From NCBI RefSeq assembly GCF_029889905.1, contig NZ_JARANZ010000001.1, positions 248,001-312,000 of the forward strand: a stretch of 64,000 nt of DNA, written 5' to 3'. Made by a program: the position numbers and the translations under genes. The number at the start of each line of letters is the position of its first letter. Position 1 is the first letter of the stretch. Under the pieces are notes generated by a model. That model searched no databases. It was given only the letters and a program-made list of their open reading frames with translations, and was not told the DNA's origin. Shown here piece by piece: positions 7,835 to 42,394 of this stretch. Origin of the DNA: Chromohalobacter sp. 11-W. Lineage in GTDB: Bacteria > Pseudomonadota > Gammaproteobacteria > Pseudomonadales > Halomonadaceae.

Positions 7835-9091
7835 TCAAAATCCGCCGTCATCCCCATTGCGCAATATGCTATCCAGCCACTTCTCCCACACATCCATCGC
7901 CTGACGTTTCTCTTTTAGGTAATCGTAGCGATCATAGTGACGGCTTGAGACGTCCTGCATGGCATGACCATGCAAGCGATCCCTGATGCCCTTCGCAACG
8001 CCTTCCTGCCCCAGCACCGTTTTTACCGTCCGGCGAATGTCTCGTGGCGCCCAGCGTTCGATGCCGGCGGTGCGTTGATACTTCCCAAGCGCAGAGGGGA
8101 GGGCAGTGATCGAGATATGCTTGCTGCGATCCTTCGGGCTTGCGAACAATAGGCCCCATTCGTTGCGCTCAGCCTGGTCGACCAAGTAGCGCAGCAAGTC
8201 GCGCGATTGCGAGGCCATTGGCACGACATGTGCCAGACTGGACTTCATCGAACTGGCTGGGATGTCGATCACGTCCGCGTCGAAATCGATATTAGCTGGC
8301 GCCAACCGCAGCAGTGATAGTGGGCGCTGACCACCGGTGGCGATGACCAGCCGGATCGCCATGGATGTCAGGTCATAAGAGGGTAGGTTGTGCCATGCGT
8401 GGGCGAGCTCTTCCGCGGTTATGACGCGCTCGCCCTGGCGCTCCCAATCTGCCTGGCGAGGGATGACTGAGACTGGGTTGGTCTCGAGAGCCCATGTCTG
8501 GTTGGAGGCTTGCCGAGGATCATGCTCGACGCTCAGGCCATGCTGATAAGCAGCATGCAGCCATGACCGGATACGGTTAGTCGTGGTGGTGATGCCCTTG
8601 CGCATGTGGAAGCTGAGCAGATCGCGTATGTCTGCGCTCGTCACCTCCCTGGCCGGTTTGTTCCAGAGTTTGGGAAACGGCTTCTTGACGTAACGCTCAC
8701 AGCGCTCAAGTACCTCGTCAGCGGTGCGTCGTCCCTGCTCGCGCATGCTGTTGGTATAGGAGATTATGAGCTCGCCCAGCGAGCCATGGATTTCTTCTTG
8801 TTTTGCAGCGGCGCGCTGCTCCCTCATGGCCTTGCCGGGGTCGACGCCATCGGTGAGTTTTGCTGCGAGGTCTGCGGCCCGTTGGCGGGCATCCTTCAAC
8901 GCCACTTCCGGATAGGCGCCGAGGCCGATTTTCCGGCGACGCTTATTAAGGTAGTAGACGTAGACCCAGTCTTTGGCTCCAGTGGGGCGCACGCGTATGA
9001 AGAGTCTCCCGGTGCCGCGCTGACCGTCATCGGAGATGGTGTATTCGCGTTCGCGGGGCTTGAGTGCGCGGAGTTGTTTCTCGTTGAGCAT
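7835..9091 (-). CDS. int: Tyrosine integrase, P4/DUF4102 type (genomic-island integrase)
   Basis: Site-specific recombinase of 418 residues. The N-terminal DUF4102 domain is clear (LNEKQLRALKPREREYTISD, then GRLFIRVRPTGAKDWVYVY and RRKIGLGAYPEVALKDAR). A core-binding domain follows and then the catalytic domain with TGGQRPLSLL (arginine), RDIRRT (second arginine), RLHGHAM and the nucleophile tyrosine near residue 386 in SSRHYDRYDY. In the HxxR box the usual histidine position reads D (PRDIRR). The gene points left, and its 5' end faces the tRNA half at 9234-9279, the expected attachment site layout. It lies outside the interval between the two tRNA halves. Confidence 0.9.
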   Translation of the reverse strand: MLNEKQLRALKPREREYTISDDGQRGTGRLFIRVRPTGAKDWVYVYYLNKRRRKIGLGAYPEVALKDARQRAADLAAKLTDGVDPGKAMREQRAAAKQEEIHGSLGELIISYTNSMREQGRRTADEVLERCERYVKKPFPKLWNKPAREVTSADIRDLLSFHMRKGITTTTNRIRSWLHAAYQHGLSVEHDPRQASNQTWALETNPVSVIPRQADWERQGERVITAEELAHAWHNLPSYDLTSMAIRLVIATGGQRPLSLLRLAPANIDFDADVIDIPASSMKSSLAHVVPMASQSRDLLRYLVDQAERNEWGLLFASPKDRSKHISITALPSALGKYQRTAGIERWAPRDIRRTVKTVLGQEGVAKGIRDRLHGHAMQDVSSRHYDRYDYLKEKRQAMDVWEKWLDSILRNGDDGGF

Positions 9092-9233
9092 CAGGGGGCC
9101 GTTAGGGGGCTATATGGGGGGCTGTTAGGATATCCCTCGTTGATGCTAGGTTACACATCGATACCCCTGGAGGCCAGTAGATAGGCCCCTTATTTACTCA
9201 GTTTGCCACCTTCTTACACCGTCACCTGACAGG

Positions 9234-9279
9234 ACTCATAATCCCTTGGTCGGCGGTTCGAGTCCGCCTGGGCCCACCA
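9234..9279 (+). repeat. tRNA 3' half (CAU anticodon, Ile2-like), probable att core, left copy
   Basis: From the anticodon loop CTCATAA (9235-9241) to the terminal CCA at 9277-9279 the sequence is a proper tRNA 3' half: variable region, T-stem GGCGG/CCGCC with loop TTCGAGT, and 3' acceptor strand TGGGCCC plus A. No D-arm or 5' acceptor strand precedes it, so it is not a whole tRNA. The resemblance is strongest to tRNA-Ile2(CAU). It starts 143 bases from the integrase start codon. A second copy with six differences in 46 bases is at 40905-40950. Anticodon-loop to 3'-end cores are a known attachment site class of tyrosine integrases. Confidence 0.75.
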
Positions 9280-9445
9280 TTAAAACAAGCACTTAGCTTC
9301 GTTTTTTCCTTCCTGAATTCGTTTCTTCCGGTGCAGTGTCCACATTTTGTCCATGCTGGATCTTGGGGGCGAATGTCGCTGCCTTAATCAGTTATCCAGC
9401 GAGCAAGCGACGCTCACACGGTGAGCATTTACCGACCCATCAAGC

Positions 9446-26445: not shown

Positions 26446-28425
26446 TTGAATACGGAGAGTCATTCTCAGTTGGCCGCCTTCATCTGGTCCGTGGCGGACC
26501 TACTGCGCGGCGACTTCAAGCAGTCCCAGTACGGCCGCATTATCCTGCCGTTTACGCTGTTACGGCGCCTGGAGTGCGTTCTGGAGCCCACCAAGGCTGA
26601 AGTGCTGAGCGCCGCTCATGAGTACCAGTTTAAGTCCGACGCCGTTCGCGAGAAGGTGATGCTACGGGTGGCCGAACAACCCTTCTTCAACGCATCACCG
26701 CTGAGCTTGGGCACGCTGTCCGATACCCAAACGGCCGATGACCTGCTGAACTATGTGCGGTCGTTCAGTCAGGATGCACGGGAAATCTTCGAGCACTTCG
26801 AGTTCGAGAGCTTCGTCCAGCAACTGACGGCCAATAACCTGCTCTATCAGGTGGTGCAGCGATTCGCTTCTATCGACATGAGCCCCAAAAGCTTATCGAA
26901 TTACGGCATGGGGCTGGTGTTCGAGGAGCTGATTCGTAAGTTCGCCGAAAGCTCCAACGAGACGGCGGGGGAACACTTCACGCCACGTGATATCGTTCAC
27001 CTTACTACCTCTCTGGTCCTCACCGGCCAAGACGAAAAGCTCAAGGGGGGCGGCATCGCCACCGTCTATGATCCGACGGCGGGTACAGGCGGTTTTCTTT
27101 CCGAGAGCGACGAGTACATGCAGCAGGTCAGCGGGGGGATGAGCGTTTCACCGCATGGACAGGAGCTCAACCCTGAGTCCTACGCGATCTGCAAGGCTGA
27201 CATGCTGATCAAGGGTCAGGAAGTCAATCAGATCAAGCTGGGCAATACGCTTTCCAATGATCAACTGGCCGGTGAACGTTTCGACTTCATGCTCTCCAAC
27301 CCGCCGTTCGGGGTGGAGTGGAAGAAGGTACAGAAGGTGATCACCGACGAGCACAAGCACAAGGGCTACGATGGCCGCTTTGGTCCTGGCTTGCCGCGCG
27401 TTTCGGATGGTTCGCTGCTGTTCTTGATGCACTTGGTGAGCAAGATGCGCCCCCGGCAGGAAGGCGGCTCACGCATCGGCATCATCTTAAACGGCTCGCC
27501 GCTGTTCACTGGCGGCGCCGGCAGCGGCGAATCCGAAATTCGTCGCTACCTACTGCAGCATGATCTGGTGGAAGCCATCGTCGGTCTGCCCACGGACATG
27601 TTCTACAACACCGGCATCGCCACCTACGTATGGATTCTCTCTAACAATAAGTCCGCCGAGCGCCGGGGCCAGGTACAACTGATCGATGCCACCGGTCGCG
27701 CCAGCAAGATGCGCAAGTCTCTGGGCAGCAAGCGCCAGTTCGTCGCCGACCGAGATATCGAGGAGATCGTACGGCTCTACGGCGCCTTTCAGGAAAGCGA
27801 GGAGAGCAAGCTGTTCCCGGTCGAGGCCTTCGGCTACCGCCGCATCACGGTGGAGCGCCCGTTGCGCCTCAACTTCCAGGCTAGCCCCGAGCGCCTGGCC
27901 CGACTCGATGACGAGAAGGCCATCCAGAAACTCGACGTGGGAGAGCGCGAAGCGCTCAAGGGTGCCTGCGCGACTTTCGACCCTGAGCAGGTCTATACCA
28001 ACCGCGACGCCTTCACCCAGGCACTGAAAGCCGCCTTGGCGGAAGCCGGGTTGAAGGTCGGCGCGCCGGTACAAAAGGCCATTCTCAACGCCCTCTCCGA
28101 GCGCGATCTAGAGGCGGATATCTGCCTGGACAAGAAGGGCAATCCGGAGCCCGACACCGGCCTGCGCGATAACGAGAACGTGCCGCTGGATGAGTCGGTG
28201 TTCGACTACTTCGAGCGCGAGGTGAAGCCCCACGTCTCCGACGCCTGGATCGACGAGGAGAAGCGCGACCCGCTGGATGGCCGCATCGGCATCGTCGGCT
28301 TCGAGATTCCCTTCAACCGGCATTTCTACCAGTTCACGCCGCCGCGTCCGCTGGAAGAGATCGACGCCGACCTCAAGGCCTGCACCGACCGGATCAAGCA
28401 GATGATCGAGGATCTGTCGGCATGA
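26446..28425 (+). CDS. hsdM: Type I restriction-modification methyltransferase subunit HsdM
   Basis: N6-adenine methyltransferase subunit of a type I restriction system, 659 residues. The N-terminal helical domain ([37 protein letters not shown]) is followed by the SAM-binding motif DPTAGTGGF at residues 209-217 and the catalytic NPPF at 285-288. The start is TTG 26446, preceded by GGGGAA; this gives the family's usual N-terminus. The long C-terminal region (from about residue 480) is rich in charged helices. It overlaps a small frame at its 3' end and lies upstream of hsdS. Confidence 0.95.
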
Positions 28426-30019: not shown

Positions 30020-30952
30020 ATGACCCAAGGACGCAGTATCCGGCTTTTCCTGGTGGATGGCACGCCCAACGGCCTGCTTACCGCCGAGATCATGAACTGG
30101 ACCGGCCATGTGCTCACCGGGCCGCGCAGCAAGCTTAGTGAGCTGGTGCAGCGCCCGGAGTGTGGCCGCACCGGGATCTACTTCCTGGTGGGGCCGGATC
30201 CCGAGAACAGCCTGCGCCCGCTGGTCTATATCGGCGAGAGCGACGACGTCGGCACTCGCCTCAAGCAGCATAACCGCCCCGAGGAGAAGGGCGGCAAGGA
30301 CTTCTGGGAGAAGGTCTGCCTGGTCACCAGCAAGGACCAGAACCTCACCAAGGCCCATGTGAAGTACCTGGAAAGCCTGCTGATTCAGAGCGCCGGCCAG
30401 GTCGGCCGCTGCAAGCTGATCAACGGCACCGCCCATGAGTACATCAACCTGCCCGAGTCGGACCGCGCAGACATGGCGTTCTTCCTGGAGCAGATCCGCA
30501 CCGTGCTGCCGGTACTGGGCCTCGACTTCCTGCGCGAGACCTCCCGCCCCTCGAGAGAGCCCGAAGCGACTACGGCTGCCGAGCCCGAGGCATCACCACG
30601 CTTCACTCTGGAAGTACCCCGGCACGGCATCCGCGCCACCGGCCAGGAGATCGACGGTGAGTTCTACGTCTTCAAGGGCTCCCTAGCCCGGGGTGGCTGG
30701 GTCGGCACCGAGCGCGGCTATCAGAGCCTCTATAACCAGCTCTGCGAGGACGGGGTGCTGGTGGAAGGCAGCAACAGCATCCGAGTGTTCAACGAGGACC
30801 AGAGCTTCAGCAGCCCCAGCGCCGCCGCCGCGGTGGTTTCTGGCCGCAGCGCCAATGGTCGGATCTCCTGGAAGGCGGAAGATAGTGGCCTGACCTACGG
30901 CGACTGGCAGGATCAGCAGGTGAGTGCGGCAGCAGAGACCGCTCCGGAATAG
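30020..30952 (+). CDS. GIY-YIG nuclease-like protein with C-terminal DUF4357
   Basis: Protein of 310 residues. A GIY-YIG-type fold spans about residues 45-125 (GRTGIYFLVG, then LVYIGESDDVGTRLKQH, with E in YLESLLI). The C-terminal part (FSSPSAAAAVVSGRSANGRISWK, residues about 260-285) is DUF4357, a small domain often found in restriction loci. A Pro/Glu-rich linker joins them. The gene starts 15 bases after hsdS and precedes an HNH gene, inside the type I cluster. Whether it cuts DNA or helps regulate the system is not known. Confidence 0.82.
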   Translation: MTQGRSIRLFLVDGTPNGLLTAEIMNWTGHVLTGPRSKLSELVQRPECGRTGIYFLVGPDPENSLRPLVYIGESDDVGTRLKQHNRPEEKGGKDFWEKVCLVTSKDQNLTKAHVKYLESLLIQSAGQVGRCKLINGTAHEYINLPESDRADMAFFLEQIRTVLPVLGLDFLRETSRPSREPEATTAAEPEASPRFTLEVPRHGIRATGQEIDGEFYVFKGSLARGGWVGTERGYQSLYNQLCEDGVLVEGSNSIRVFNEDQSFSSPSAAAAVVSGRSANGRISWKAEDSGLTYGDWQDQQVSAAAETAPE

Positions 30953-30970: not shown

Positions 30971-32131
30971 ATGTCGAAAAAAGTAAGAAACAAAAAAAGA
31001 AAAGAGGAAGCGGGTCGCCTAGGAGAAATCAGGAGAAGAATTGAGGATCATCAGAATAAAATTGGGGCCACGACACGAGATAAAAGAGTGGCCTGGCAGG
31101 TGGCTGAAAATATCCATGATGATGTAAGTGACAATGATGACGACTTGGCTGTAGATGTTGAAGCTAAGCGAGGCTCAGAACCATCTTCCGATGATGAGGT
31201 TTATTTTCTTTGGGTTTTTGAACCAGCAGATTTAGACGGCATGTCGATTGAGCAGGTTGATGAGGTTTGGAAACACAGGGAGCAGCTATGTGGATCCAAA
31301 GAAGCTGCTGCGGAGGCTCTTGCTATTGTTGAGGCTTCAGCCGGGGTAGTGGAAAGCTATCAAGGATGGCAAGCTTATATAAACAGAGATGAAGTTGTCA
31401 CGTTAAAGGCTCCGTTTTTATCTGATGATTCCGAGCAAAGCTATGCTAGAGTGATTGAAAAAAACGCTTTGACAAGAGCTCAGGTTTTAGAGCTAGGCAA
31501 TGATGATCTTAAGGCGGCCTGGAAGAACAGGCCCAACAGCTTTTCGAGTGTTCAAGCAGCTTGCCAAGCTCTTGCATTATTAAGAGAAAGGGCCGGCGTC
31601 GTAGCCGTCAGTAATTGGCAGGGGGTGATGAGCCATCCAGAGATAGAAAAAATAAAAGATGACCTTCCAGTCGAGGCCGGTTTAGATGATTTTTTTGAAG
31701 ATGTAAGAGTCGAAAGTAAAGGTGCGTCATCCGTTGACCTGAGAAAGCGAGCGCAGAGAATCCATGTGGTTAGGGAAGGTCAGCGAGAATTTCGGCTTTC
31801 AGTTATTGATAATTATTATGGGGGTTGTTGCATAACTAATAGTGGTGTTGTTGAGGTGTTGGAAGCTGCGCATATAAGCCCGTACTCAGGGCCTCAATCA
31901 AATAGGTTAGATAATTCGTTGTGCTTGCGAGTGGATATTCACCGTCTGTTTGATAAATTTTTGCTAAGCATCGACCCTGAGTCCAGCGTAGTAAGGCTCA
32001 GCGACGTCATAAAAAAAGATCGCCAATATGGGGAGCTTGAAGGGTTACAGGTTACAAAAGGGCGAGTTAAAGCTTCAAAATATTTGTTGAGCCAGCACTT
32101 TAGGACATTTGTTAAGCGCCAAGTCGGTTAG
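30971..32131 (+). CDS. HNH endonuclease with duplicated N-terminal module
   Basis: Protein of 386 residues with a C-terminal HNH_2-type nuclease (GGCCITNSGVVEVLEAAHIS, H301, LDNSLCLRVDIHRLFD with N315 and H324). The very basic N-terminus (KKVRNKKRKEEAGRLGEIRRR) is followed by an acidic stretch. Two similar modules at about 93-140 and 170-224 both read Q-V-x-E...W-K...AA..ALA....GVV....WQ, an internal duplication without a name known to me; possibly a DNA- or protein-binding repeat. The gene is strongly AT-rich compared with its neighbours in the type I cluster, so it was probably inserted from elsewhere. Confidence 0.8.
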   Translation: MSKKVRNKKRKEEAGRLGEIRRRIEDHQNKIGATTRDKRVAWQVAENIHDDVSDNDDDLAVDVEAKRGSEPSSDDEVYFLWVFEPADLDGMSIEQVDEVWKHREQLCGSKEAAAEALAIVEASAGVVESYQGWQAYINRDEVVTLKAPFLSDDSEQSYARVIEKNALTRAQVLELGNDDLKAAWKNRPNSFSSVQAACQALALLRERAGVVAVSNWQGVMSHPEIEKIKDDLPVEAGLDDFFEDVRVESKGASSVDLRKRAQRIHVVREGQREFRLSVIDNYYGGCCITNSGVVEVLEAAHISPYSGPQSNRLDNSLCLRVDIHRLFDKFLLSIDPESSVVRLSDVIKKDRQYGELEGLQVTKGRVKASKYLLSQHFRTFVKRQVG

Positions 32132-32184
32132 GTGGCTGTATTCAATGCAAAGGCTTTTAATTAACTTTCTAAAATATGGGGGCT

Positions 32185-32823
32185 ATGTGCGGCCGCTTCG
32201 CCCTCTATAGCGACTTCCTCAGTCTGGCACGCTCCCTCAAGCTGCCGCTGGCAGAGGTCGAGCTGACGCCTCGCTACAACGCCGCACCCGGCACCTGGAT
32301 GTCGGCAGTGTGCAGGCATGACGACAGAGCTGAGCCTGGATGCCCTCTGGTGGGGTTATCAGCCGCACTGGCTGACGACAAGGTCCCGCAGCCCATCAAC
32401 GCCACCGTGGAGAAGGTCGCCACCTCCCCCTACTTCCATGGCGCCTTCGCCCATCACCGATGTCCGATACCTGCTGATGGCTGGTACGAGTGGCTGGCTG
32501 TGGAAGACCGCAAGCAGCCCCACTACCTGACCCGCCACGACGGCAAGCCGCTATGGTTCGCCGGCATCTGGACGGAACGCCCGGACGGCAAGTCCGGCTG
32601 CACGATCCTTACCGAGCCTGCCCGCGGTGTCGCCAAGGCGGTCCACCCGCGCATGCTGCTGATTCTGGGTCAATGGAGCCTGGAGCCCTGGCTGACGGAC
32701 CGTGAGACGATCCGCCACCTCGTCCACCACCTTCCGCAGGATCGGCTAAACCACTGGCCGGTGAGCATCCGGGTTAATAAGCCGGTAGAGGATGATCCGG
32801 TGCTGATCGAGGCGGTGGGCTGA
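32185..32823 (+). CDS. SRAP/HMCES-family protein with compensated frameshift
   Basis: SOS-response-associated peptidase family (YedK/HMCES), 212 residues. These proteins bind abasic sites in single-stranded DNA through Cys2. ATG 32185 places Cys at position 2 (MCGRFALYSD). Conserved parts are RYNAAPGTW, PINATVEKVATS, ADGWYEW (glutamate) and VHPRMLLIL (histidine). Between codons for RHDD and DKVPQ the reading is wrong: the +1 frame gives ELSLDALWWGYQPHWLT, the expected SRAP motif. An extra A near 32326 and a missing G near 32377 restore the frame. Either two sequencing errors or two real compensating mutations. It sits between HNH and hsdR. Confidence 0.8.
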   Translation: MCGRFALYSDFLSLARSLKLPLAEVELTPRYNAAPGTWMSAVCRHDDRAEPGCPLVGLSAALADDKVPQPINATVEKVATSPYFHGAFAHHRCPIPADGWYEWLAVEDRKQPHYLTRHDGKPLWFAGIWTERPDGKSGCTILTEPARGVAKAVHPRMLLILGQWSLEPWLTDRETIRHLVHHLPQDRLNHWPVSIRVNKPVEDDPVLIEAVG

Positions 32824-33259: not shown

Positions 33260-36200
33260 ATGGCGGACAGCCGGGAACACCGATTCCAGCAGGACATCAT
33301 CGAGGCCATGACCGAAGCGGGGTGGCAAGTCGGCACCTCCAATGGTTATGACCGCACCACGGCGCTCTACACGGAAGACGTGATTGCCTATCAACGGGAA
33401 GCGTGGCCCGAGCGCTGGGAAAAGTTCTGCCAGGCCAATCCCCGCGCGCCGGAGACCGTGCTGATCCAGAAGCTCGTCCGCGAGCTGGAAAAGGCCGATA
33501 CGCTCGACGTGTTGCGCCATGGCTTCAAGGTGCCGGGGGTGAAGCTCGATCTGTGCAGCTTCAAGCCCGACCATGCCATGAATCCCGACTCTCTGGCCCG
33601 CTATCGCGCCAACCGCCTGCGCGTGGTGCCGGAGGTCTCTTATTCCCCGCATGCCCGCGAGCAAGGCAAGGGCGGGCAGGCCTATAATCCCCGCCTCGAC
33701 CTTGTACTGTTCGTCAACGGTATTCCCACCGCGACGCTGGAACTCAAGAGCGCATTCAAGCAGTCCGTGGAGAACGCCAAACGTCAGTATCGCTTCGACC
33801 GCCCGATAAAGGACCCGGTCACGCGCAAGGCTGAGCCGCTGCTTACCTTCAAGCGCGGTGCTCTGGTGCATTTCGCCGTCAGTCAGTCGGAAGTCGCCAT
33901 GACGACTCGGCTGGCGGGTAAGGAAACCTTCTTCTTGCCCTTCAATCGGGGCACCGAGGATGGCGGCGCGGGTAATCCTCTGCCTGAGGATGAATGCCGC
34001 TACGCAACCGATTACCTCTGGCGGGAAGTGCTTCAACCGGATGCCTGGCTGAAGATTCTGGGGCGTTTTCTGCACCTGGAGAAAAAGACCAGCGAGGATT
34101 TCCACGGCCGCCGCCACACCAAGGAAACCCTCATCTTTCCGCGCTACCACCAGTGGGAAGCGGTCAATCGGCTGATTCACGCCACGCGCGAGGAGGGGGC
34201 CGGCCAGCGATATCTGGTGCAGCACAGCGCCGGCTCCGGCAAGTCCAACTCCATCGCCTGGTGTGCCCACCAGCTGGCCAACCTCTACGCTGAGGACGGG
34301 AAAAAGCTCTTCAACTCGGTGATCGTGGTGACCGATCGCACTGTGCTCGACAGCCAGTTGCAGGACACCATTTATCAATTCGAGCATGCCCACGGCGTGG
34401 TGTGTCCGATCACACGTGATGTTGGGAGCCAGAGCAAATCCGAGCAGCTTGCCGAGGCTCTGGCCAGCAACACGCGGATCATCATCGTCACCATCCAGAC
34501 GTTTCCTGCGCTCTTCGATGCCCTGGACAAGCGGCCCAAGCTCGCCGAGGGTCGCTACGCGGTGATCGCCGACGAAGCCCACTCTTCGCAGACCGGTAGC
34601 TCGGCCAGCAAGCTCAAGGCTCTGTTGGCGGCAGCGGGAGAAAACCTGGCAGATGAAGATGAAGTGAGTTCAGAAGCGCTGATGGATGCCGCCGTAGCGG
34701 CTCGTCGCCCGAGTGAGCGCATCAGCTATTACGCGTTTACCGCCACCCCCAAGGCCAAGACGCTGGAGCTGTTCGGCCGGCCACCCGACCCGACGTTACC
34801 CGCAGGTGACGATAACAAGCCCGAACCGTTTCACCTCTACTCCATGCGGCAGGCCATCGAGGAAGGTTTCATTCTCGATGTGCTCAAGAATTACGTTACC
34901 TACGGTACCGCGTGGAGACTGGCCCACCCGGAGGCCGACGCCCAGGAGGTGGAGTCCAAGAAGGCGTCTCGAACCCTGGCGCGTTGGGTGCGTCTGCATC
35001 CCTACAATATCTCCCAGCGGGTCGAGATCATCGTCGAGCATTTTCGTGCCAATGTACGCCACCTGCTGGATGGCCAGGCCAAGGCCATGGTGGTCACCGC
35101 TAGTCGACAAGAGGCCGTACGCTATCAACTGGCCATGCGCGATTACATCGCCGACAAAGGCTATGACAACGTGTATCCGCTGGTGGCCTTCTCGGGTAGC
35201 GTGCCGCCTGATGAGGTGATTCCCGAGGAGGTCACCGAGACCAGTCAGCGACTCAATCCAGGGCTCAATGGCCGCGATCTGGCCGAAGCGTTCGATACTG
35301 ATAACTACAACGTCATGATCGCCGCCAACAAGTTTCAGACCGGCTTCGACCAGCCCAAGCTGTGCGCCATGTACGTGGACAAGAAGCTCCAGGGTGTCGA
35401 CTGCGTACAGACCCTCTCGCGGCTCAACCGGCTGTATCCTGGCAAGGAAACCTTCGTTCTCGACTTCTACAACGATGCCAAGGATATTCTCGATGCCTTC
35501 GCGCCGTATTACCGGCAGGCCGAGCTGGAGGGCGTCTCCGACCCTCAGGTGGTGTTCGATCTCAAGCGCACGCTGGACGCTGCCGGTATCTACCATTGGG
35601 AGGAAGTCGATGCTTTCGCCAAGGCTTTCTATGACCCCAAGGCGCCGGCCTCCAGCCTGAGCTACCATTGCCAGCCCGCGCAGGACCGTTTTCAGAAGCG
35701 TTATAGCGCGCTGCTCGACCAGATCGACACCTGGACCGAGGCACGCCAACAGGACGAGCAAAACGGCGATGAAAAAGGCCGGCTACGCGCCGAGCAGGAG
35801 CTAAAGGACGCCGGCACCTCCCTTGACGAGCTCGATCTCTTTCGCAAGAACCTCACCAGCTTCGTACGCTCCTACGAGTTTCTCAGCCAGATCATCACCT
35901 TCGACGATCTCGAACTGGAAGAACTGTGCGTTTACGCCAAGCACCTCCAGCCGCTACTGCGCAGTGAGCGACTGACGGACGAAGACCCGGTCGATGTCAG
36001 CGAACTGGAACTGACCCACTACCGCATGACCAAGCGTGCCGAACAACAACTGAAGCTGGAAGTCGCCGAGGGAAAGCCGCTCAAACCTGGCACCGACGTT
36101 GGCTCCGGCAAGCCCCATGACCCTGAGAAACAACGCCTCGCCGAGATCATCGAACGGCTCAACGATCTTTATGGGTCCGAAGTCAGCGACGACGACAAGC

Positions 36201-36460
36201 TGCACTTCGCCAATGGCATCGCCGACCGCATCGAACGCGACGAAGCGGTGATGGCGCAAGTGCGCAATCACAGCGAAGACCAAGTGATGCACGGCCTATT
36301 TCCCAAGAAGGTCACCGACGCCGTACTCGATAGCATGAGCGATCAAGAAAAGCTCAGCATGCCGCTACTGGAGAATGAGGAAACGGGCAGGCAGTTTGCG
36401 CTGTTGATTCTCAAGCTGTTGGCGGGGAGGAGCGGACGAGAAGTACAGTCAAATATGTGA
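33260..36460 (+). CDS. hsdR: Type I restriction endonuclease subunit HsdR
   Basis: Restriction and translocation subunit, 1066 residues. A PD-(D/E)xK nuclease site is visible (D147 in RLDLVLFVNG, E161 and K163 in LELKS). The SF2 motor follows with Walker A HSAGSGKS at 322-329, DEAH at 438-441 and ITFAATPKAK-like TATPKAK near 495. The C-terminal helical region from about 800 contacts the methylase. The start has AGGGAA ahead. It is separated from hsdM/hsdS by the GIY-YIG, HNH and SRAP genes. The stop overlaps a small frame (TGATG). Confidence 0.95.
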   Translation: MADSREHRFQQDIIEAMTEAGWQVGTSNGYDRTTALYTEDVIAYQREAWPERWEKFCQANPRAPETVLIQKLVRELEKADTLDVLRHGFKVPGVKLDLCSFKPDHAMNPDSLARYRANRLRVVPEVSYSPHAREQGKGGQAYNPRLDLVLFVNGIPTATLELKSAFKQSVENAKRQYRFDRPIKDPVTRKAEPLLTFKRGALVHFAVSQSEVAMTTRLAGKETFFLPFNRGTEDGGAGNPLPEDECRYATDYLWREVLQPDAWLKILGRFLHLEKKTSEDFHGRRHTKETLIFPRYHQWEAVNRLIHATREEGAGQRYLVQHSAGSGKSNSIAWCAHQLANLYAEDGKKLFNSVIVVTDRTVLDSQLQDTIYQFEHAHGVVCPITRDVGSQSKSEQLAEALASNTRIIIVTIQTFPALFDALDKRPKLAEGRYAVIADEAHSSQTGSSASKLKALLAAAGENLADEDEVSSEALMDAAVAARRPSERISYYAFTATPKAKTLELFGRPPDPTLPAGDDNKPEPFHLYSMRQAIEEGFILDVLKNYVTYGTAWRLAHPEADAQEVESKKASRTLARWVRLHPYNISQRVEIIVEHFRANVRHLLDGQAKAMVVTASRQEAVRYQLAMRDYIADKGYDNVYPLVAFSGSVPPDEVIPEEVTETSQRLNPGLNGRDLAEAFDTDNYNVMIAANKFQTGFDQPKLCAMYVDKKLQGVDCVQTLSRLNRLYPGKETFVLDFYNDAKDILDAFAPYYRQAELEGVSDPQVVFDLKRTLDAAGIYHWEEVDAFAKAFYDPKAPASSLSYHCQPAQDRFQKRYSALLDQIDTWTEARQQDEQNGDEKGRLRAEQELKDAGTSLDELDLFRKNLTSFVRSYEFLSQIITFDDLELEELCVYAKHLQPLLRSERLTDEDPVDVSELELTHYRMTKRAEQQLKLEVAEGKPLKPGTDVGSGKPHDPEKQRLAEIIERLNDLYGSEVSDDDKLHFANGIADRIERDEAVMAQVRNHSEDQVMHGLFPKKVTDAVLDSMSDQEKLSMPLLENEETGRQFALLILKLLAGRSGREVQSNM

Positions 36461-36612
36461 TGCTTGACCAAAGGGTAATGAGGCTGTTTCTGATGCACAA
36501 ACTTATCCAAGTTTTCCCACAGTGCACGATGTGGCTGATGACGGATCAGGTGAACGAGGAAGCCGGGCAGATCAGCCCGGAGATAGAGCAGGCGCAAAAG
36601 GCGCTCAAGTAG
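36460..36612 (+). CDS. Possible 50-residue protein coupled to hsdR
   Basis: A short frame begins in a TGATG overlap with the hsdR stop. The product is mixed hydrophobic then acidic (MTDQVNEEAGQISPEIEQAQ near the end). No Shine-Dalgarno site is evident, so coupling to hsdR would be needed. No known domain. It may be chance. Confidence 0.3.
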   Translation: MLDQRVMRLFLMHKLIQVFPQCTMWLMTDQVNEEAGQISPEIEQAQKALK

Positions 36613-36745
36613 ACAACGGATACCGACTAGCCGGAAAGGCAGCTGCAAGGTGATACCAGGGTGGCAGGCTCTCAAAATAGGAGGTCGGCCTTGAGCAGGG
36701 AACAAACAAAGTGGATAACGATGACAAACCACGGAGGGCGTGGCT

Positions 36746-36874
36746 ATGTACCAAGCCATTCAGGATATAGGCGAAACAGTCGTGACCCATGTTATTTACG
36801 GTGTACTGCTTTTGATTGCTGTGGCACTGCTGCAAACCTTGTTCGGGAGACAGAAAAAAATAAGCGGAGATTAA
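36746..36874 (+). CDS. Small single-span membrane protein, 42 residues
   Basis: ATG 36746 has an ideal ribosome site (GGAGGG at 36733-36738, seven-base gap). The product starts MYQAIQDIGETVVTH, has one clear membrane helix (VIYGVLLLIAVALLQTLF, residues about 16-33) and ends in a basic tail (GRQKKISGD). The basic end suggests an N-out, C-in topology. It lies 450 bases before the KAP-family NTPase gene on the same strand and after hsdR. Its role is unknown; a membrane partner of the NTPase is a testable idea. It is too short for normal gene finders. Confidence 0.6.
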   Translation: MYQAIQDIGETVVTHVIYGVLLLIAVALLQTLFGRQKKISGD

Positions 36875-37323
36875 AAAATAAGAACTACTCTGAAATACTA
36901 ATTGAGCGCGGTGACGCCTATGCTGAACGAACTCATCTAATGCCCCCTCCGAAAGAGAATTCTTTAAATTCATAGCAGGGGAAGGTGTTGTGAAAAATAC
37001 CATGTCTTTTGCCAGGTGCGTGTGGTTGACCTGATTCAGCCAGATGCGCAAAATATCACTCGAAAAACAAAGGATATACAATTTTTTAGACAGTTGTAGC
37101 AGTGCTATCTTGATTTGCGTTATGCTTAAAAAAGGTTTTGGTACTTTTTTCGCACTAGAATTCGATGATGCTACTCATGAGAGAAAAGACAGAAAAGCGT
37201 GACAGGATTCTTAATAAAGTCTTTGTGTCATTAGGTTAATTATTAAAAGGATTCGAATAAATCATAAAAAAGTATTAAGTTGTTTGTTTTTGGCAATGCA
37301 TGGAATCTGGGTAAGGGGGTGAT
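36875..37323. other. AT-rich leader of the KAP NTPase gene
   Basis: About 450 bases of AT-rich sequence with no frame that has both a good start and a ribosome site. The strong AAGGGGGTGAT just before 37324 is the ribosome site of the next gene. A promoter is expected here but I cannot assign one with confidence. Confidence 0.45.
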
Positions 37324-40300
37324 ATGAATATGAAGAGCGAATTTCCGACGAGTAAGGTTAAAATAATAAAAGATTCACCAAGTGATGAGGATTTTTTTAG
37401 TGGGAAAGGGCACAAAAGGTCTGCGCACGCATTATCAGAAACAATAGTTCAGCTTTCAGATAGTGGAGGGGCTGTCGGTTTAGAGGGGCCCTGGGGGGCT
37501 GGTAAATCATCAGTTATAAAGATGGCCGAGAATAGCTTGGCTAACGAGCGAAATATAGCAAAGGTTTTTACATTTGATTTGTGGTCACATTATACGGAGG
37601 ATTTTAGAAGATCCTTTCTTGAAAGTTTGGTTTCTTGGATGCAGCAGGAAAAGGTTGAAGGGTTTAGTGACTCCTTAGCAGATGATGCAAGGGGGCGGAT
37701 CAGAGATAAAGTTAAGACGATAGTATACGAAAAAGAGTCTAGTTATAGTTGGGCTGGTGCTTTTTTTATAGCTGTTGTTCCCTTGATACCGCTAGCATAT
37801 ATGTGGTTAAGTCCGTTTGCTTTTAGTGAAGACCCTATAGCCCCCAAAAGCAAATATACAGAATATGCGGAATGTTTTGTGTATGTTATTTATGGGGTGC
37901 TAGCTTCTAGTGTCTTTATTAACTTCTTGTCAAAAAGAAAGGAAGGGGTTTTAAAGGCGATTTCTAAATCGGTCAACGTTTTCTCGAAAGAAGTTGATAA
38001 AGAGGTTTTGGATCAGTACATAAGAGACAAGGATCCTACTTCTGCCGAGTTTTACGATCTTTTCGCTTGGTTGGTTGGCTGCTCTAAAAATACTCAAATA
38101 GTTTTGGTTTTTGATAATATTGATCGCCTTCCTATGGAAAAGATACCAGAGGTTTGGTCAGAGGTTAGATCAATATTTACAGTGTGTGAACCGGGGAAAG
38201 AGCCAGTTAATGTTGTTGCGGTCGTGCCTTACGATAAAAAGTTGATAATGGATGCGTTTAAAAGCGCTTTGCAAAATTCCGAATGCATAGTTGAGGAGGA
38301 TATATTTAACAAGACTTTTGATAGAACCATTAAAGTTTCTCCTCCGTTGGCTACTGACTGGAAGCAATATCTTTCATTTAATGTTGCGAATGCGCTGGAA
38401 GAAGAAGTTCCTTCTGATGTTCTTGATCGTTTGTTTAGACTTCTGCAAAGAAAAATTCAAGAAGATTCAGTGTTGCCCACCCCTAGGGTTGTTATTTCTT
38501 ATGTTAATGAAATAGGGTCATTGTATACTCAGTGGGGCTCAAATATACCCATTGAAACAATGGCATTATATGTGTTGCATAGGAGTGAAGTTGATAATGA
38601 CCCCTTGTTTTTAGAAAAGAGTAGTTGCATAAGTGAGAGATTTTTACATGTGGCAAACGACTCTGAATGGAGAAAGAATCTAGCCGCGTTGATTTTTAAT
38701 GTTGAGCCTAAAGATGCTAATGAGGTTTTGCTGACAGATCCCGTTAACGGGGCGCTCGTTAAAGATGAAGACTCTGAAATAAAAGACTTGTCTGAAGTCA
38801 AGGGTTTTGATGAAATACTTGCTAACGTAGTGCATGAAAACTCAAAGTCTTGGGCAGAGGAAGGGGACTTGGTGTTGTCCAATGTGGCTAGAAATTTGAG
38901 TGCTATTGATCTTTCAAGAAGTTTGGAGTTGGACGTGTGGCTACAGCTAGAGAAAACGTTGCGCACAGTTCAGTTTGGCCCGCTAGAGAGACTGGATAAG
39001 CTCAAAGGCCTGCTTGAAATAGTTCAGGCAAGTAAGCATCCATTCAATGCGTCTTTAATACTTTTCCTTGCTCTTAGGCGGTCCGTTATAGATAAGGAAA
39101 ATCTAGGCGTGCATCATGGTGTTTTATGGTCTAGCTTTGTTTTTTCTGTCATAAAAAAAGCTTGTAAATGTTCTCGCTCTGAGCTGAAAGACTTTCCTAT
39201 AAATAAGGTTGAGATTCCCCGGGGAGAAAGCTTCGCGATAGGTGTGGCGATTTGCTGTGAGCAAGATCAATATTTTGCATTTGATGATCTAAAGCTTGTG
39301 CATAATAAAGATGAAATTCATAAACAGCTTTCCGGTCTTATAGATGAAGATGCTGCCTCCTATCTAAGTGCTTACAATCAGTTGCGAGAGAGCGTATTAA
39401 GTGAAAGCAATATCAATGAGGACTACAAGAAGTTAATAAATCGCCTGAATTCTGAGGATGTTGAAGGCCTGGCAGATGTGATTGAAGCTGTTAGGCAGTT
39501 GTCCGATGATAGTAAAGATTTTTCTGCCTTAGAGAGTTATTTTAGTAATGGGAAAATTTATATTCATATTGAAAAGCTTTCTGATTTGGAAGATGATAAA
39601 TCATTAGCGTCTTTGATTTGGATTGTTCTGAATAAAAACTCGGCACCTACGCTTAGCGTTGCACCAAATCCCAACGTTCAAAATTCAGTTCCAGGGGCAA
39701 AGTCAGGATGGGATCACACGGCGAGAATTTTTGAAGGAAAATGCCCAGATTCTGCTATAAAAAGACTATCAGAGTTTGCGAGAGATAACGGTTTTTTCAA
39801 CAAGATCGCTGGCTATGCTATTAAAAATGGAAGCGGTCTGTATAAGATTGTTTTAAAGTATATGCTATTAACCACTGGCATTGGAAGGGTTAATGCTTTG
39901 TACTTGGTGTATAACTATAAAAGTATTATTGCAGCTTGCGGTAAAGAAGTGAGTAGTGATGTTATAAGGGATATTGGTGAGAGGTTTAGTGACAGGCTGG
40001 ATATAGACTTCAGTAAAGTGCCTTCTGCGTTTGTAATAGATTTGTACCCTTGCATTAATAATAAAAAACTTGCGGTTTTATATGGAAAGATTGCTAGGCA
40101 TCTTCAGGATTTGAGTGTAGCTGAGTTTTCAGAAGCTCTATATGAAGAGGGCAATGATCTTGATTTGCTTATAGCCGTTAAGAAAGTTGATTCTTCCTTC
40201 AAACTTTCAGCTGGAATTTATAGGCCGGTAATAGTTGATCATGCCTGTGATATCATAAGGGGTGAGCAAAAGCTTCCGACAAGATCTGGTGATTGGGAGT

Positions 40301-40674
40301 ACGTTGTTTCTTGTATAAAGAATCGATCATATAGAGCTATTGGCCAAGATATCATAGATAAAGCTGGAGTTCACTACCTTGAAAAAGATGGGGTAGAAAG
40401 TTTTTTTACTATTTATTCAGATATAACTTATGAAATGCCTCTTGAAGAATATCCTGATCTAAGCCTTAATAGGATTTATTCTAACTTGTGTGCTATTGCT
40501 AACGATGAGTGGGCTGAGCTTTATGAAAAGCATTTGGGAAAAGTTAAGAAGTGTCTAGAAAGCTGTGAGAAAGGTACAAAAGAAGATTTTATTGAGATCG
40601 TCAATAAACATGAAAATTCTTTTTGTAGAGTGGTTCGGGAAGGTTTGGATCTGCAAGAGCAATCGGGTAGTTGA
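37324..40674 (+). CDS. KAP-family P-loop NTPase, membrane-associated, candidate defence protein
   Basis: Large protein of 1116 residues. Walker A is GPWGAGKS at residues 55-62. Two membrane helices (about 145-163 and 184-202) are inserted before Walker B (IVLVFDNIDRL, about 259-269). This split arrangement and the FTFDLWSHYTEDFRRSFLESL segment are the marks of KAP NTPases (Kidins220/PifA group). F-plasmid PifA, a member, excludes phage T7. The C-terminal 700 residues are helical and have no domain I can name. The gene is far more AT-rich than the chromosome, stands next to a type I restriction locus and ends 230 bases before a tRNA half-site, all typical of island defence cargo. Confidence 0.8.
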   Translation: MNMKSEFPTSKVKIIKDSPSDEDFFSGKGHKRSAHALSETIVQLSDSGGAVGLEGPWGAGKSSVIKMAENSLANERNIAKVFTFDLWSHYTEDFRRSFLESLVSWMQQEKVEGFSDSLADDARGRIRDKVKTIVYEKESSYSWAGAFFIAVVPLIPLAYMWLSPFAFSEDPIAPKSKYTEYAECFVYVIYGVLASSVFINFLSKRKEGVLKAISKSVNVFSKEVDKEVLDQYIRDKDPTSAEFYDLFAWLVGCSKNTQIVLVFDNIDRLPMEKIPEVWSEVRSIFTVCEPGKEPVNVVAVVPYDKKLIMDAFKSALQNSECIVEEDIFNKTFDRTIKVSPPLATDWKQYLSFNVANALEEEVPSDVLDRLFRLLQRKIQEDSVLPTPRVVISYVNEIGSLYTQWGSNIPIETMALYVLHRSEVDNDPLFLEKSSCISERFLHVANDSEWRKNLAALIFNVEPKDANEVLLTDPVNGALVKDEDSEIKDLSEVKGFDEILANVVHENSKSWAEEGDLVLSNVARNLSAIDLSRSLELDVWLQLEKTLRTVQFGPLERLDKLKGLLEIVQASKHPFNASLILFLALRRSVIDKENLGVHHGVLWSSFVFSVIKKACKCSRSELKDFPINKVEIPRGESFAIGVAICCEQDQYFAFDDLKLVHNKDEIHKQLSGLIDEDAASYLSAYNQLRESVLSESNINEDYKKLINRLNSEDVEGLADVIEAVRQLSDDSKDFSALESYFSNGKIYIHIEKLSDLEDDKSLASLIWIVLNKNSAPTLSVAPNPNVQNSVPGAKSGWDHTARIFEGKCPDSAIKRLSEFARDNGFFNKIAGYAIKNGSGLYKIVLKYMLLTTGIGRVNALYLVYNYKSIIAACGKEVSSDVIRDIGERFSDRLDIDFSKVPSAFVIDLYPCINNKKLAVLYGKIARHLQDLSVAEFSEALYEEGNDLDLLIAVKKVDSSFKLSAGIYRPVIVDHACDIIRGEQKLPTRSGDWEYVVSCIKNRSYRAIGQDIIDKAGVHYLEKDGVESFFTIYSDITYEMPLEEYPDLSLNRIYSNLCAIANDEWAELYEKHLGKVKKCLESCEKGTKEDFIEIVNKHENSFCRVVREGLDLQEQSGS

Positions 40675-40904
40675 AGTTTTTGGTTTTATGCTTGTATGAA
40701 GTAGGTTTGTGGTGACGCTAGAGTTTTTGCATTTTTTAGATGCTGGAAAGATCTGGTTTTTTTATTGTGTCGGCTTTTTAGATCGCCACATAATCTTCCT
40801 GAAATGGTGTGTACATCGTGTCGATGCTGTAAACGTATGAAGGTCGATAGAGGCATGTATGCACCTTTTCAAGTATTGACTTGGAATGGTACGCGTTAGG
40901 CTTA

Positions 40905-40950
40905 ACTCATAATACCTTGGTCGCAGGTTCAAGTCCTGCTGGGCCCACCA
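40905..40950 (+). repeat. tRNA 3' half (CAU anticodon, Ile2-like), probable att core, right copy
   Basis: Runs from ACTCATAA through T-stem GCAGG/CCTGC with loop TTCAAGT to TGGGCCC-A-CCA. It differs from the left copy (9234-9279) at six of 46 positions. Four of those form two compensatory base-pair changes in the T-stem. No 5' half precedes it (the anticodon stem does not pair), so it is not an intact gene. Confidence 0.75.
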
Positions 40951-41032
40951 TTCTCGAAGTACTCTCGTTCAGGACTCTGAGGCTTTGAGAAGCTTCTCGG
41001 CGTTGCTGTGGCGTCTCTCCGCCACGCCATAC

Positions 41033-41104
41033 GCTTGACCGCCGTCATCCCGCCATCCTCCACGCTTCCTATACTTGGTGATGGCCTGCCGCCCCGGGTA
41101 GGCG
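41033..41104 (+). repeat. Promoter-like block, first copy
   Basis: CTTGACC, 29 bases, TATACT, then GGCCTGCCG and GGGTAGGCG. The same order and spacing recur at 41274-41346 ahead of the alcohol dehydrogenase. Here it precedes only a broken gene start. Confidence 0.6.
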
Positions 41105-41139
41105 CGTCGTTTCGCGCACTCGACGCCCGGGTCTTCACT

Positions 41140-41190
41140 AACTGACCGGAGGGGCGGGCAGTGTCGGTTCGCAACCTAGATGCGCTTCCT
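41140..41190 (+). pseudogene. Broken duplicate of the acyl-CoA synthetase gene start
   Basis: CTGACCGGAGGGGC, then GTG 41161 and codons for SVRNLDAL match the leader and first codons of the gene at 42430 (CGGACCGGAGAGGC, ATG, SIRNLDAL). After about nine codons the similarity ends, and the frame is unrelated until it stops at 41364. Confidence 0.65.
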
Positions 41191-41273
41191 ACCTGCCTTC
41201 CGTCGCCCAAGTATGAGCCGCGGATGGTGGCCCTGCGTAAAGAGTTCGCTAATAGGCAATGTCACTTCCAAAA

Positions 41274-41346
41274 ACTTGACCCTGATCAATCCCCATTCCC
41301 CAGCGCTTTCTATACTCAGGCGAGGGCTTGCCGAGTCGCGGTAGGC
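41274..41346 (+). promoter_or_regulatory. Promoter-like block ahead of alcohol dehydrogenase, second copy
   Basis: CTTGACC (41275-41281), 29 bases, TATACT (41311-41316), then GGCTTGCCG and GGTAGGCG, ending 20 bases before the gene. TATACT is a plausible -10. The 29-base gap is too long for a -35, so the conserved TTGACC part may be an activator site. Confidence 0.5.
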
Positions 41347-41365
41347 GTTACCCGGGGAGGGTGAC

Positions 41366-42394
41366 ATGAAAGCGCTTGTCTATGAGGGAGTGGGGCAGCG
41401 GGCCTGGAAGGAGAAGAAACGACCCGCAATCGAGCAACCCACGGATGCCATCGTGCGGGTGACGCATACCACCATTTGCGGCACCGATCTGCACATCCTC
41501 AAGGGCGATGTGCCGGCGGTGACGCCGGGGCGCACCCTGGGCCATGAAGGCATCGGGGTGATCGAGGAGGTCGGCGGGGGCGTCAGCGGTCTCGCGGTCG
41601 GCGATCAGGTGCTGATCTCGTGCATCACGTCGTGCGGGCACTGCGATTACTGCAAGCAGGGCATGTATGCGCATTGCCGCGATGGCGGGTGGATTCTCGG
41701 TCACAAGATCGATGGCACCCAGGCCGAGGTCGTGCGCATCCCGCATGCCGCCAACAGCCTGTACCGGTTGCCGCCGGGGTTGGAGCCTGCCGCGGCGCTG
41801 ATGCTGAGCGATATCCTTCCCACCGGCCACGAGATCGGTGCGTTGAACGGCGAGGTCTCGCTGGGGGATACCGTGGCCATCGTCGGTGCTGGGCCCATCG
41901 GGCTGGCCGCCTTGTTGACCGCGCGCTTCTATTCGCCGGGACGCATCATCATGGTCGACCCGGACGAGAACCGCCTGGCCGTGGCGCGGCAACTAGGCGC
42001 GACCGATACCGTCAGTGCCGATCCGGTGGAGACGATCATGTCGCTCACCGACGGCGAGGGCGTCGACGTGGCCATGGAGGCCGTGGGTATCCCTGAGACG
42101 TTCGATACCTGCCAGCGCATCCTGCGTCCGGGCGGACGGCTCGCCAACATCGGCGTGCATGGCCGCAGCGTCGAATTGCGCCTCGAGGAGCTGTGGATCA
42201 AGAACGTCACGGTCCGGACCGGGTTGGTGAACACCAATACCATTCCCGTGCTCATGCGGTTTCTCGAGACCGGCGGCATCGACGCTGAAAGCCTGATCAC
42301 CCACCGTTTCGCGCTGGACGAGATCGAAAAGGCGTACGAGGTGTTCTCGCGTGCCGCGTCGGAAAAGGCCATCAAGATGCTGCTGACCGCCTGA
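41366..42394 (+). CDS. Zinc-dependent alcohol dehydrogenase (medium-chain)
   Basis: MDR-family dehydrogenase of 342 residues. The catalytic zinc ligands are visible in TTICGTDLH and GHEGIGVIEE, the structural zinc cysteines in CGHCDYCKQGMYAHC, and the NAD-binding motif in VAIVGAGPIGLAALL near residue 172. The ribosome site GGGGAGG precedes ATG 41366. A synthetase/acetyltransferase fusion follows after 35 bases, probably in one operon. Together they could turn an alcohol or aldehyde into an acyl-CoA, but the alcohol is not known. Confidence 0.9.
   Translation: MKALVYEGVGQRAWKEKKRPAIEQPTDAIVRVTHTTICGTDLHILKGDVPAVTPGRTLGHEGIGVIEEVGGGVSGLAVGDQVLISCITSCGHCDYCKQGMYAHCRDGGWILGHKIDGTQAEVVRIPHAANSLYRLPPGLEPAAALMLSDILPTGHEIGALNGEVSLGDTVAIVGAGPIGLAALLTARFYSPGRIIMVDPDENRLAVARQLGATDTVSADPVETIMSLTDGEGVDVAMEAVGIPETFDTCQRILRPGGRLANIGVHGRSVELRLEELWIKNVTVRTGLVNTNTIPVLMRFLETGGIDAESLITHRFALDEIEKAYEVFSRAASEKAIKMLLTA

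What the first reader, a model, noticed from the sequence alone, without database searches (positions are those of the whole stretch)
36746..40674. KAP-family NTPase with a tiny membrane protein, placed at the island edge beside a restriction system
Seen: a 1116-residue protein with Walker A (GPWGAGKS), two membrane helices inserted before Walker B (VFDNIDRL), and about 700 C-terminal residues with no domain I can name. A 42-residue single-span membrane protein with a near-ideal ribosome site lies upstream on the same strand. Both are strongly AT-rich and sit between hsdR and a tRNA half-site. Known: the split P-loop is the mark of KAP NTPases, and F-plasmid PifA, which excludes phage T7, belongs there. 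Inference: the two genes form a membrane-based phage-exclusion or stress-sensing cassette that gene finders would miss in part because the small partner is only 42 residues.
Basis: partly seen in the sequence, partly recalled or inferred. Interest (0 to 1): 0.75.

Follow-up and report, generated by a model that had tools for sequence, protein, structure and literature searches.

The report
Lone membrane NTPase in defence hotspot

Summary
The KAP NTPase at 37324-40674 is real: an unbroken frame, 38.7% G+C against 59.9% for hsdR, Walker A and B, two hydrophobic segments between them, and a predicted all-helical C-terminal half. The 42-residue "partner" is not a gene. It is the N-terminus of a broken, membrane-anchored DUF2726 protein of about 187 residues, whose remains run on in three frames to about 37268. 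Larger relatives without stops exist elsewhere in the family. Upstream lies the tail of a broken helix-turn-helix gene. Neither sits beside KAP homologues in the loci examined.

The defence reading gains from another side. Between hsdR and a conserved flank lies a variable slot; in sister genomes it or its interval holds Dsr1, Gabija-like genes or other defence candidates (4 of 6 examined; 2 of 6 held nothing recognised). The stretch lies in a tRNA-Met integration hotspot; the half-site is confirmed (44 of 46 bases). Six of eight homologue loci from named genomes have mobile-element or restriction genes nearby, but one follows a ribonucleotide reductase gene.

Most likely it is a stand-alone membrane KAP NTPase for phage defence, working like Tmn: C-terminal sensing, ATP-driven assembly, arrest of the infected cell. 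Activity and mechanism are inferred. New member of a known kind.

The parts
37324..40674 (+). KAP-family P-loop NTPase, 1116 residues, unbroken frame
   Evidence: PF07693 82.4 bits; upstream AAGGGGGTGATATG
37486..37509 (+). Walker A, GPWGAGKS (residues 55-62)
   Evidence: pattern found in 14 of 14 family members
37753..37809 (+). hydrophobic segment 1 (residues 144-162)
   Evidence: Kyte-Doolittle 1.98 over 19 residues; two peaks between the Walker motifs in 12 of 14 members, one in the other two
37864..37920 (+). hydrophobic segment 2 (residues 181-199)
   Evidence: Kyte-Doolittle 1.68
38101..38127 (+). Walker B, VLVFDNIDR (residues 260-268)
   Evidence: pattern found in 14 of 14 members
38731..40671 (+). 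C-terminal all-helical repeat-like region (residues 470-1116), possible sensor
   Evidence: AlphaFold2 model of the region alone pLDDT 79.3, pTM 0.61, helices only; low conservation beyond residue 500
   Evidence: 79% identical over residues 1-38 to the start of a larger frame at L049
36746..37268 (+). remains of a membrane-anchored DUF2726 gene, broken across three frames
   Evidence: tblastn pieces cover residues 1-177 of the 187-residue relative with stops inside; relative is PF10881 at 98.3 bits
36513..36627 (+). C-terminal remains of a helix-turn-helix regulator gene
   Evidence: DNA matches to L031-L035; tblastn 47% identity; a longer relative (L051) matches HTH_3 weakly (22.2 bits, cut-off 23)
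33260..36460 (+). hsdR, type I restriction subunit
   Evidence: match at E 1e-50 in 5 of 10 genomes of the genus, own included
26446..28425 (+). hsdM, type I methylase
   Evidence: 932.8 bits
28607..30004 (+). hsdS, type I specificity subunit
   Evidence: 398 bits
40905..40950 (+). tRNA-Met half-site (att-like), right end of the island
   Evidence: 44 of 46 bases identical to the tRNA-Met at G000:C1:234137-234213
9232..9279 (+). second tRNA-Met half-site, nested island
7835..9091 (-). tyrosine integrase with Arm DNA-binding domain, beside the second half-site
   Evidence: PF00589 and PF13356 over cut-off

Best explanation
A stand-alone, membrane-inserted KAP-family NTPase carried as exchangeable cargo in the defence part of a tRNA-Met island. 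Likely working, inferred throughout: the two inserted helices hold the NTPase core at the inner membrane; the fast-diverging helical C-terminus senses a phage product; ATP drives assembly, by analogy with ring-forming RdrA and multimeric QatA; and the assembled protein damages membrane function or otherwise stops the infected cell, as is recalled for PifA-type exclusion and guessed for Tmn. It needs no dedicated small partner. The broken regulator and DUF2726 gene upstream are remains of a module that in other genomes precedes other third genes.
For: Shown: KAP family; Walker motifs in 14 of 14 and two hydropathy peaks in 12 of 14 members. Model of the full protein: residues 16-450 align to AAA+/STAND-like cores; best is RdrA of the RADAR defence system, Z 14.8, rmsd 7.0, 270 residues, tied with Cdc6 (Z 14.4); Avs3 is at Z 11.9. 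In Foldseek 8 of the 11 matches at E 0.001 or better are RdrA chains, with low TM-scores of 0.15-0.20 by the query. C-terminus all helical; identity to the query 7-17% per 50-residue block beyond residue 500 against 14-48% before it (12 other rows, the partial L042 left out). Slot: similarity to four sister genomes stops at the end of hsdR and resumes at 41271-41272. Cargo there: Dsr1 1706.8 bits in G396; GajA 247 and GajB 177 bits plus a CHAT protein in G391. Beside the same flank in G237: PDC-M29A 80 and PDC-M29B 47 bits. A 714-base stretch ending in tRNA-Met is in 10 of 10 genomes. Homologue neighbours: hsdR and hsdS beside KAP in L040; integrases in L043 and L046; a Mu-type transposase in L044; a resolvase in L047; a conjugation gene in L042.
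Against: No activity was tested. No PADLOC or NCBIfam model covers the protein: PifA 47.1 bits and QatA 30.5-36.8 bits match only the start. Cargo in 2 of 6 other genomes examined (G390, G392) matched no defence model; in G394 the candidates match only partly and lie about 10 kb from the flank. In L041 KAP follows the ribonucleotide reductase small-chain gene, and in L029 it lies between a sugar-type regulator gene and an amidase gene. In L045 the only recombinase recognised is of the tyrosine type and may be an ordinary XerC. The core fold match is shared with replication initiators. The full model is only middling (pTM 0.38) and the membrane part is of low confidence.
Confidence: 0.53

Rival explanations
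1. One reading: KAP NTPase plus a 42-residue single-span membrane protein acting together.
For: The 42-residue frame is hydrophobic, has GGAGG ahead of it and lies upstream on the same strand. A truncated product could in principle still be made.
Against: It is the start of a broken DUF2726 gene. A hydrophobic small frame lies upstream in 1 of 14 homologue loci, a weak case. A DUF2726 or regulator relative lies in 0 of 19 KAP-homologue loci.
Confidence: 0.03
2. KAP is cargo of the regulator plus membrane-DUF2726 module: a third gene once controlled or sensed through the module, which has since decayed, so KAP may be unregulated or silent here.
For: KAP starts 55 bases after the last recognisable piece of the DUF2726 remains. 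In relatives the DUF2726 gene is followed at once by other frames: 305 residues in L083, 308 in L085, 479 in L086, 224 in L093 and L094.
Against: No regulator-DUF2726-KAP trio without breaks was found, so adjacency in this one genome may be accident.
Confidence: 0.2
3. KAP is an accessory of the type I restriction system, for example a guard that acts when restriction is blocked.
For: KAP follows hsdR here and lies beside hsdR and hsdS in L040.
Against: In the four sister genomes with this hsdR, KAP DNA is absent from the slot behind it. Among the eight named-genome loci a restriction gene was recognised only in L040 (not every neighbour was scanned).
Confidence: 0.08
4. KAP serves the mobile element, membrane stress or an ordinary cell function rather than phage defence.
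For: Mobile context; L041 and L029 lie beside ordinary genes.
Against: The same slot or interval holds defence-like genes in 4 of 6 sister genomes examined.
Confidence: 0.19

Closest known systems
Tmn (transmembrane NTPase defence system)
   Same: Described as a KAP-family NTPase with two unusual transmembrane domains, mechanism unexplored (PMC11846954, passages seen). That it is a single gene is recalled.
   Different: No Tmn sequence was at hand, so kinship beyond the KAP core is untested. No model named Tmn was hit in PADLOC; whether the library holds one was not established.
F-plasmid PifA (KAP-family T7 exclusion protein; its role is recalled)
   Same: KAP-type core; alignable around Walker A and Walker B.
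   Different: 741 residues, no hydropathy peak at the threshold used, C-terminus not alignable. It was picked as the P-loop gene beside pifC, not by a gene name.
QatA of qatABCD
   Same: KAP NTPase with a C-terminal part of unknown homology; reported to bind DNA and to form 7- or 8-mers (PMC13279940, passages).
   Different: QatA belongs to a four-gene operon; NCBIfam QatA scores 36.8 bits here against a cut-off of 600.
RdrA of RADAR
   Same: Nearest solved structure to the NTPase core; heptameric ring in the entry titles.
   Different: Tied with Cdc6 in score, low TM-scores; no deaminase match among the neighbours scanned.
IncHI2-plasmid KAP proteins (L059, L060)
   Same: About 1,080 residues; L059 is matched by this family's profile at 174.8 bits, mainly residues 5-522; a helix-turn-helix gene lies upstream, on the opposite strand.
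   Different: C-terminal half hardly alignable; function not given in the record.

Membership tests
KAP family P-loop NTPase | KAP_NTPase domain over the curated cut-off | tested here: met
   PF07693 82.4 bits, cut-off 20, residues 34-401
KAP family P-loop NTPase | Walker A and Walker B motifs | tested here: met
   14 of 14 members
KAP family P-loop NTPase | membrane segments inserted between Walker A and B (in many members; recalled) | tested here: met
   two hydropathy peaks, 144-162 and 181-199; membrane insertion itself not tested
Tmn defence system | KAP NTPase with two transmembrane segments | tested here: met
   definition from PMC11846954 passages; segments by hydropathy only
Tmn defence system | sequence kinship to the characterised Tmn proteins along the full length | not tested
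   the accessions named in the paper were not looked for; no Tmn-named model hit
Tmn defence system | protects against phage | not testable with these tools
   needs a plaque assay
PifA | full-length similarity to PifA | tested here: not met
   main matches at residues 15-73 and 253-313 around the Walker motifs; profile 40.5 bits in two pieces
qatABCD | QatA equivalog score | tested here: not met
   36.8 bits against a cut-off of 600
qatABCD | qatB, qatC and qatD beside the NTPase | tested here: not met
   next genes are hsdR upstream and a zinc-type alcohol dehydrogenase and a CoA-ligase-like gene downstream
RADAR (RdrA) | RdrA fold along the full length | tested here: inconclusive
   core only, model residues 20-405, Z 14.8, tied with Cdc6
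   1 of 14 loci, a weak case
DUF2726 (identity of the 42-residue frame) | larger relatives carry the DUF2726 domain | tested here: met
   98.3, 101.6 and 109.7 bits for L049, L050 and L051, cut-off 24.7

The most novel reading that the evidence does not exclude
A regulator plus a membrane-anchored DUF2726 (restriction-nuclease-fold) protein form a portable front end in this bacterial family. It takes exchangeable third genes as effectors, and the window preserves a case in which a KAP membrane NTPase was the third gene and outlived the decayed front end. That would be a modular defence architecture that I did not find described in the one search made for DUF2726 and defence.
Probability: 0.2. 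Interest if true: 0.55.

Novelty: new member of a known kind. Interest (0 to 1): 0.33.

Why it matters
It corrects a tempting reading: a tiny membrane protein with a good ribosome site turned out to be the preserved start of a dead gene. It also shows a tRNA-Met hotspot in one genus whose slot behind hsdR holds Dsr1, Gabija-like, unknown or KAP cargo in different genomes, a cheap place to look for new defence genes. Long KAP NTPases with two membrane segments and a fast-changing helical C-terminus remain mechanistically unexplained, and this family gives more sequences to compare.

Tried and rejected
Viral contigs scan with the KAP protein: 22 pattern matches, none confirmed. Phage records: none. 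E. coli genomes by DNA: none. The class sample found 1 genome beyond the own one (G574), the phylum sample none. The 42-residue frame in plasmids and phages: none. Rfam over 36000-41500: two hits, both far below their gathering scores. Solved structures by sequence: one hit at E 0.67 for the single protein, none for the profile. The C-terminal region alone gave no Foldseek match at E 0.001 or better and a best VIA Z of 9.3, below the level that the tool calls meaningful for helical repeats; so it is only called helical-repeat-like. The viral structure library gave two matches at E 0.001 or better, one a KAP protein of a giant virus.

Considered and dropped: that hydropathy plus ribosome site makes the 42-residue frame a gene (shuffles favoured it, but homology explains it); that PifA is the nearest relative; that the half-site is chance.

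Limits: KAP was not searched over all 10 genomes of the genus. The slot or interval was read in 6 other genomes (G390, G391, G392, G396, G237, G394). For G393 only about 1.4 kb beside the dehydrogenase was on the contig; G395 and G397 had no match to it. The script found no main frame in 7 of 30 loci and mis-parsed several loci on the minus strand, so its counts are lower bounds; those loci also hold only about 1.5 kb on each side. L042 holds a KAP frame of only 661 residues and was left out of the block conservation. The organism of the window was not identified.
Full report
The observation. The 1116-residue frame at 37324-40674 is present and is a KAP-family NTPase: PF07693 matches residues 34-401 at 82.4 bits against a cut-off of 20. 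The gene has 38.7% G+C, hsdR 59.9%. The half-site at 40905-40950 matches the genome's own tRNA-Met at 44 of 46 bases.

The small partner. The frame at 36746-36874 codes for 42 residues and has a GGAGG ahead of it. In 2000 dinucleotide shuffles of 36461-37323 some hydrophobic small frame arose in 8%, one with a ribosome-site 5-mer in 0.45%, and one as hydrophobic as this in 0.1%. So it is more than chance, but it is not a gene. In a search of 275 genomes of the family, 6 (own included) matched at E 0.1: its residues 1-38 match the start of a 193-codon frame at 79% identity, and residues 1-36 match three further larger frames at 42-47%. The two remaining hits (E 0.05 and 0.07) lie in transport proteins and are taken as chance. 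Three of the larger proteins carry the DUF2726 domain at 98-110 bits. Searched with the nearest relative, 44 of 275 genomes have a match, own included, and the window's own locus appears as two pieces with 6 and 7 stops inside. The pieces cover residues 1-177 of 187 in three frames between 36746 and 37268. Just upstream (36513-36627) lies the tail of a helix-turn-helix regulator gene, also found beside DUF2726 or ATPase genes in relatives. DUF2726 has been described as a restriction-nuclease-fold DNase domain joined to abortive-infection domains (PMC3710099, passages).

Is a small frame kept beside KAP elsewhere? Of 14 homologue loci with the KAP start in view, 1 (L044) has a hydrophobic small frame within 900 bases; it is weak, lacks a ribosome site and overlaps a 1009-residue opposite frame. 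A DUF2726 or regulator relative is in 0 of 19 KAP-homologue loci (two of them the same Marinimicrobium place), and among 43 DUF2726 or regulator loci, some overlapping, KAP is found only in the window's own.

The homologues. In samples, 5 of 390 genomes of the order (own included) have a match at E 1e-10, 2 of 369 of the class at 1e-30 and 1 of 398 of the phylum, the own one. Plasmid records: 106 with a match, one covering at least 80% of the query. A scan of named genomes gave 8 loci, from Rhodobacteraceae (two), Hyphomicrobiales, Ruegeria, Aurantimonas, Amylibacter, Shimia and Marinimicrobium. Walker patterns are in 14 of 14 aligned members and two hydropathy peaks in 12 of 14. Of the 8 loci, 6 have mobile or restriction genes in view: hsdR and hsdS in L040, a conjugation gene in L042, integrases in L043 and L046, a Mu-type transposase in L044, a resolvase in L047. 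L045 has a tyrosine recombinase that may be an ordinary XerC, and I do not count it. L041 has KAP right after the ribonucleotide reductase small-chain gene. L029, outside these 8, lies between a regulator with a sugar-binding (SIS) domain and an amidase gene. The last two speak against a purely mobile or defence setting.

The slot. hsdR has relatives at E 1e-50 in 5 of 10 genomes of the genus, the own one included. In the four others, similarity to the window stops at the end of hsdR (36429-36445) and resumes at 41271-41272. Between these points: G396 has a 1260-residue protein matching Dsr1 at 1706.8 bits; G391 has GajA-like (247 bits), GajB-like (177 bits) and CHAT-domain genes; G390 has a 357-residue protein with no family match; G392 has a 241-residue protein with no match and a transposase gene. 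G237 has, beside the same flank, a two-gene candidate (PDC-M29A 80 bits, PDC-M29B 47 bits; for the first gene the AriA model scores slightly higher at 82.8), remains of the regulator and of hsdR, and another type I restriction gene. G394 has an ATPase, a cytosine methylase and other partly matching candidates in the same interval but about 10 kb from the flank. So 4 of 6 other genomes carry defence-like cargo and 2 of 6 do not. A 714-base stretch ending in tRNA-Met matches in 10 of 10 genomes and the flanking dehydrogenase gene in 8 of 10, once incomplete. The distance between them, where both lie on one contig, is 55 kb here, 36 kb in G391, 23 kb in G392, 27 kb in G394 and 16 kb in G390. An Arm-type integrase (7835-9091) lies beside a second half-site at 9232-9279. 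I read this as a tRNA-Met integration hotspot with nested islands.

Anatomy and likely working. The model of the whole protein has mean pLDDT 72.9 and pTM 0.38; the membrane part is of low confidence. Its core resembles AAA+/STAND ATPases: RdrA of RADAR at Z 14.8 (rmsd 7.0, 270 residues), tied with Cdc6; Avs3 at 11.9. The C-terminal part folded alone is all helices (pLDDT 79.3, pTM 0.61), with no match above what helical repeats give anyway. Identity to the query is 14-48% per 50-residue block up to residue 500 and 7-17% beyond. A kept engine with a fast-changing helical tail suggests sensing, which is inference. QatA, another KAP protein, is reported to bind DNA and to form 7- or 8-mers (PMC13279940, passages), and Tmn is described as a KAP NTPase with two transmembrane domains that inhibits T2, P1 and other phages by an unexplored mechanism (PMC11846954, passages). 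I therefore hold it most likely (0.53) that this is a stand-alone membrane NTPase of phage defence that assembles upon sensing and stops the infected cell. Family, hydrophobic segments, slot and half-site are shown; membrane insertion, sensing, assembly, outcome and phage target are inferred.

Membership. It is a KAP NTPase. It is not PifA or QatA by sequence. Tmn membership is open: anatomy agrees, full-length kinship was not tested. The text searches were made; I make no claim that the hotspot is absent from print.

Side lead. The regulator plus membrane-anchored DUF2726 pair recurs, with different genes following (a regulator relative in at least 10 of 30 loci, a lower bound because of parsing faults). 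KAP begins 55 bases after the last piece of the dead DUF2726 gene, so it may once have been such a third gene; no unbroken trio with KAP was seen.

Noticed in passing
36513-37268; L033, L034, L049, L050, L051, L083-L112: A helix-turn-helix regulator plus membrane-anchored DUF2726 pair recurs in the family, followed by varied third genes; a possible modular cassette.
   Followed up: partly
30020-30952: DUF4357 protein with a weak GIY-YIG match inside the type I operon matches the PADLOC candidate PDC-S14 at 444 bits; DNA of this stretch is also found in the four sister loci.
   Followed up: no
30971-32823: An HNH gene (44% G+C) and an SRAP gene sit inside the restriction operon; DNA of this stretch is seen in G392 only among four sister loci, where the SRAP part is interrupted by about 1.25 kb.
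   Followed up: no
L022:9111-10184: 357-residue protein in the same slot of G390 with no Pfam or PADLOC match; a candidate unknown defence gene.
   Followed up: no
L021:8937-9662: 241-residue protein in the same slot of G392 without a family match, beside a transposase gene.
   Followed up: no
L040:983-7700: A KAP homologue lies tail to tail with hsdR, about 60 bases apart, in a Rhodobacteraceae metagenome-assembled genome.
   Followed up: partly
L041:6425-11462: In Marinimicrobium the KAP homologue directly follows the ribonucleotide reductase small-chain gene, an unexpected place for a defence gene.
   Followed up: partly
L011:8980-12464: The Rhizobium gallicum plasmid homologue is annotated as two overlapping frames, so it may be split or broken.
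   Followed up: no
window 7835-9281: A second, nested tRNA-Met half-site with its integrase inside the 55 kb interval.
   Followed up: partly
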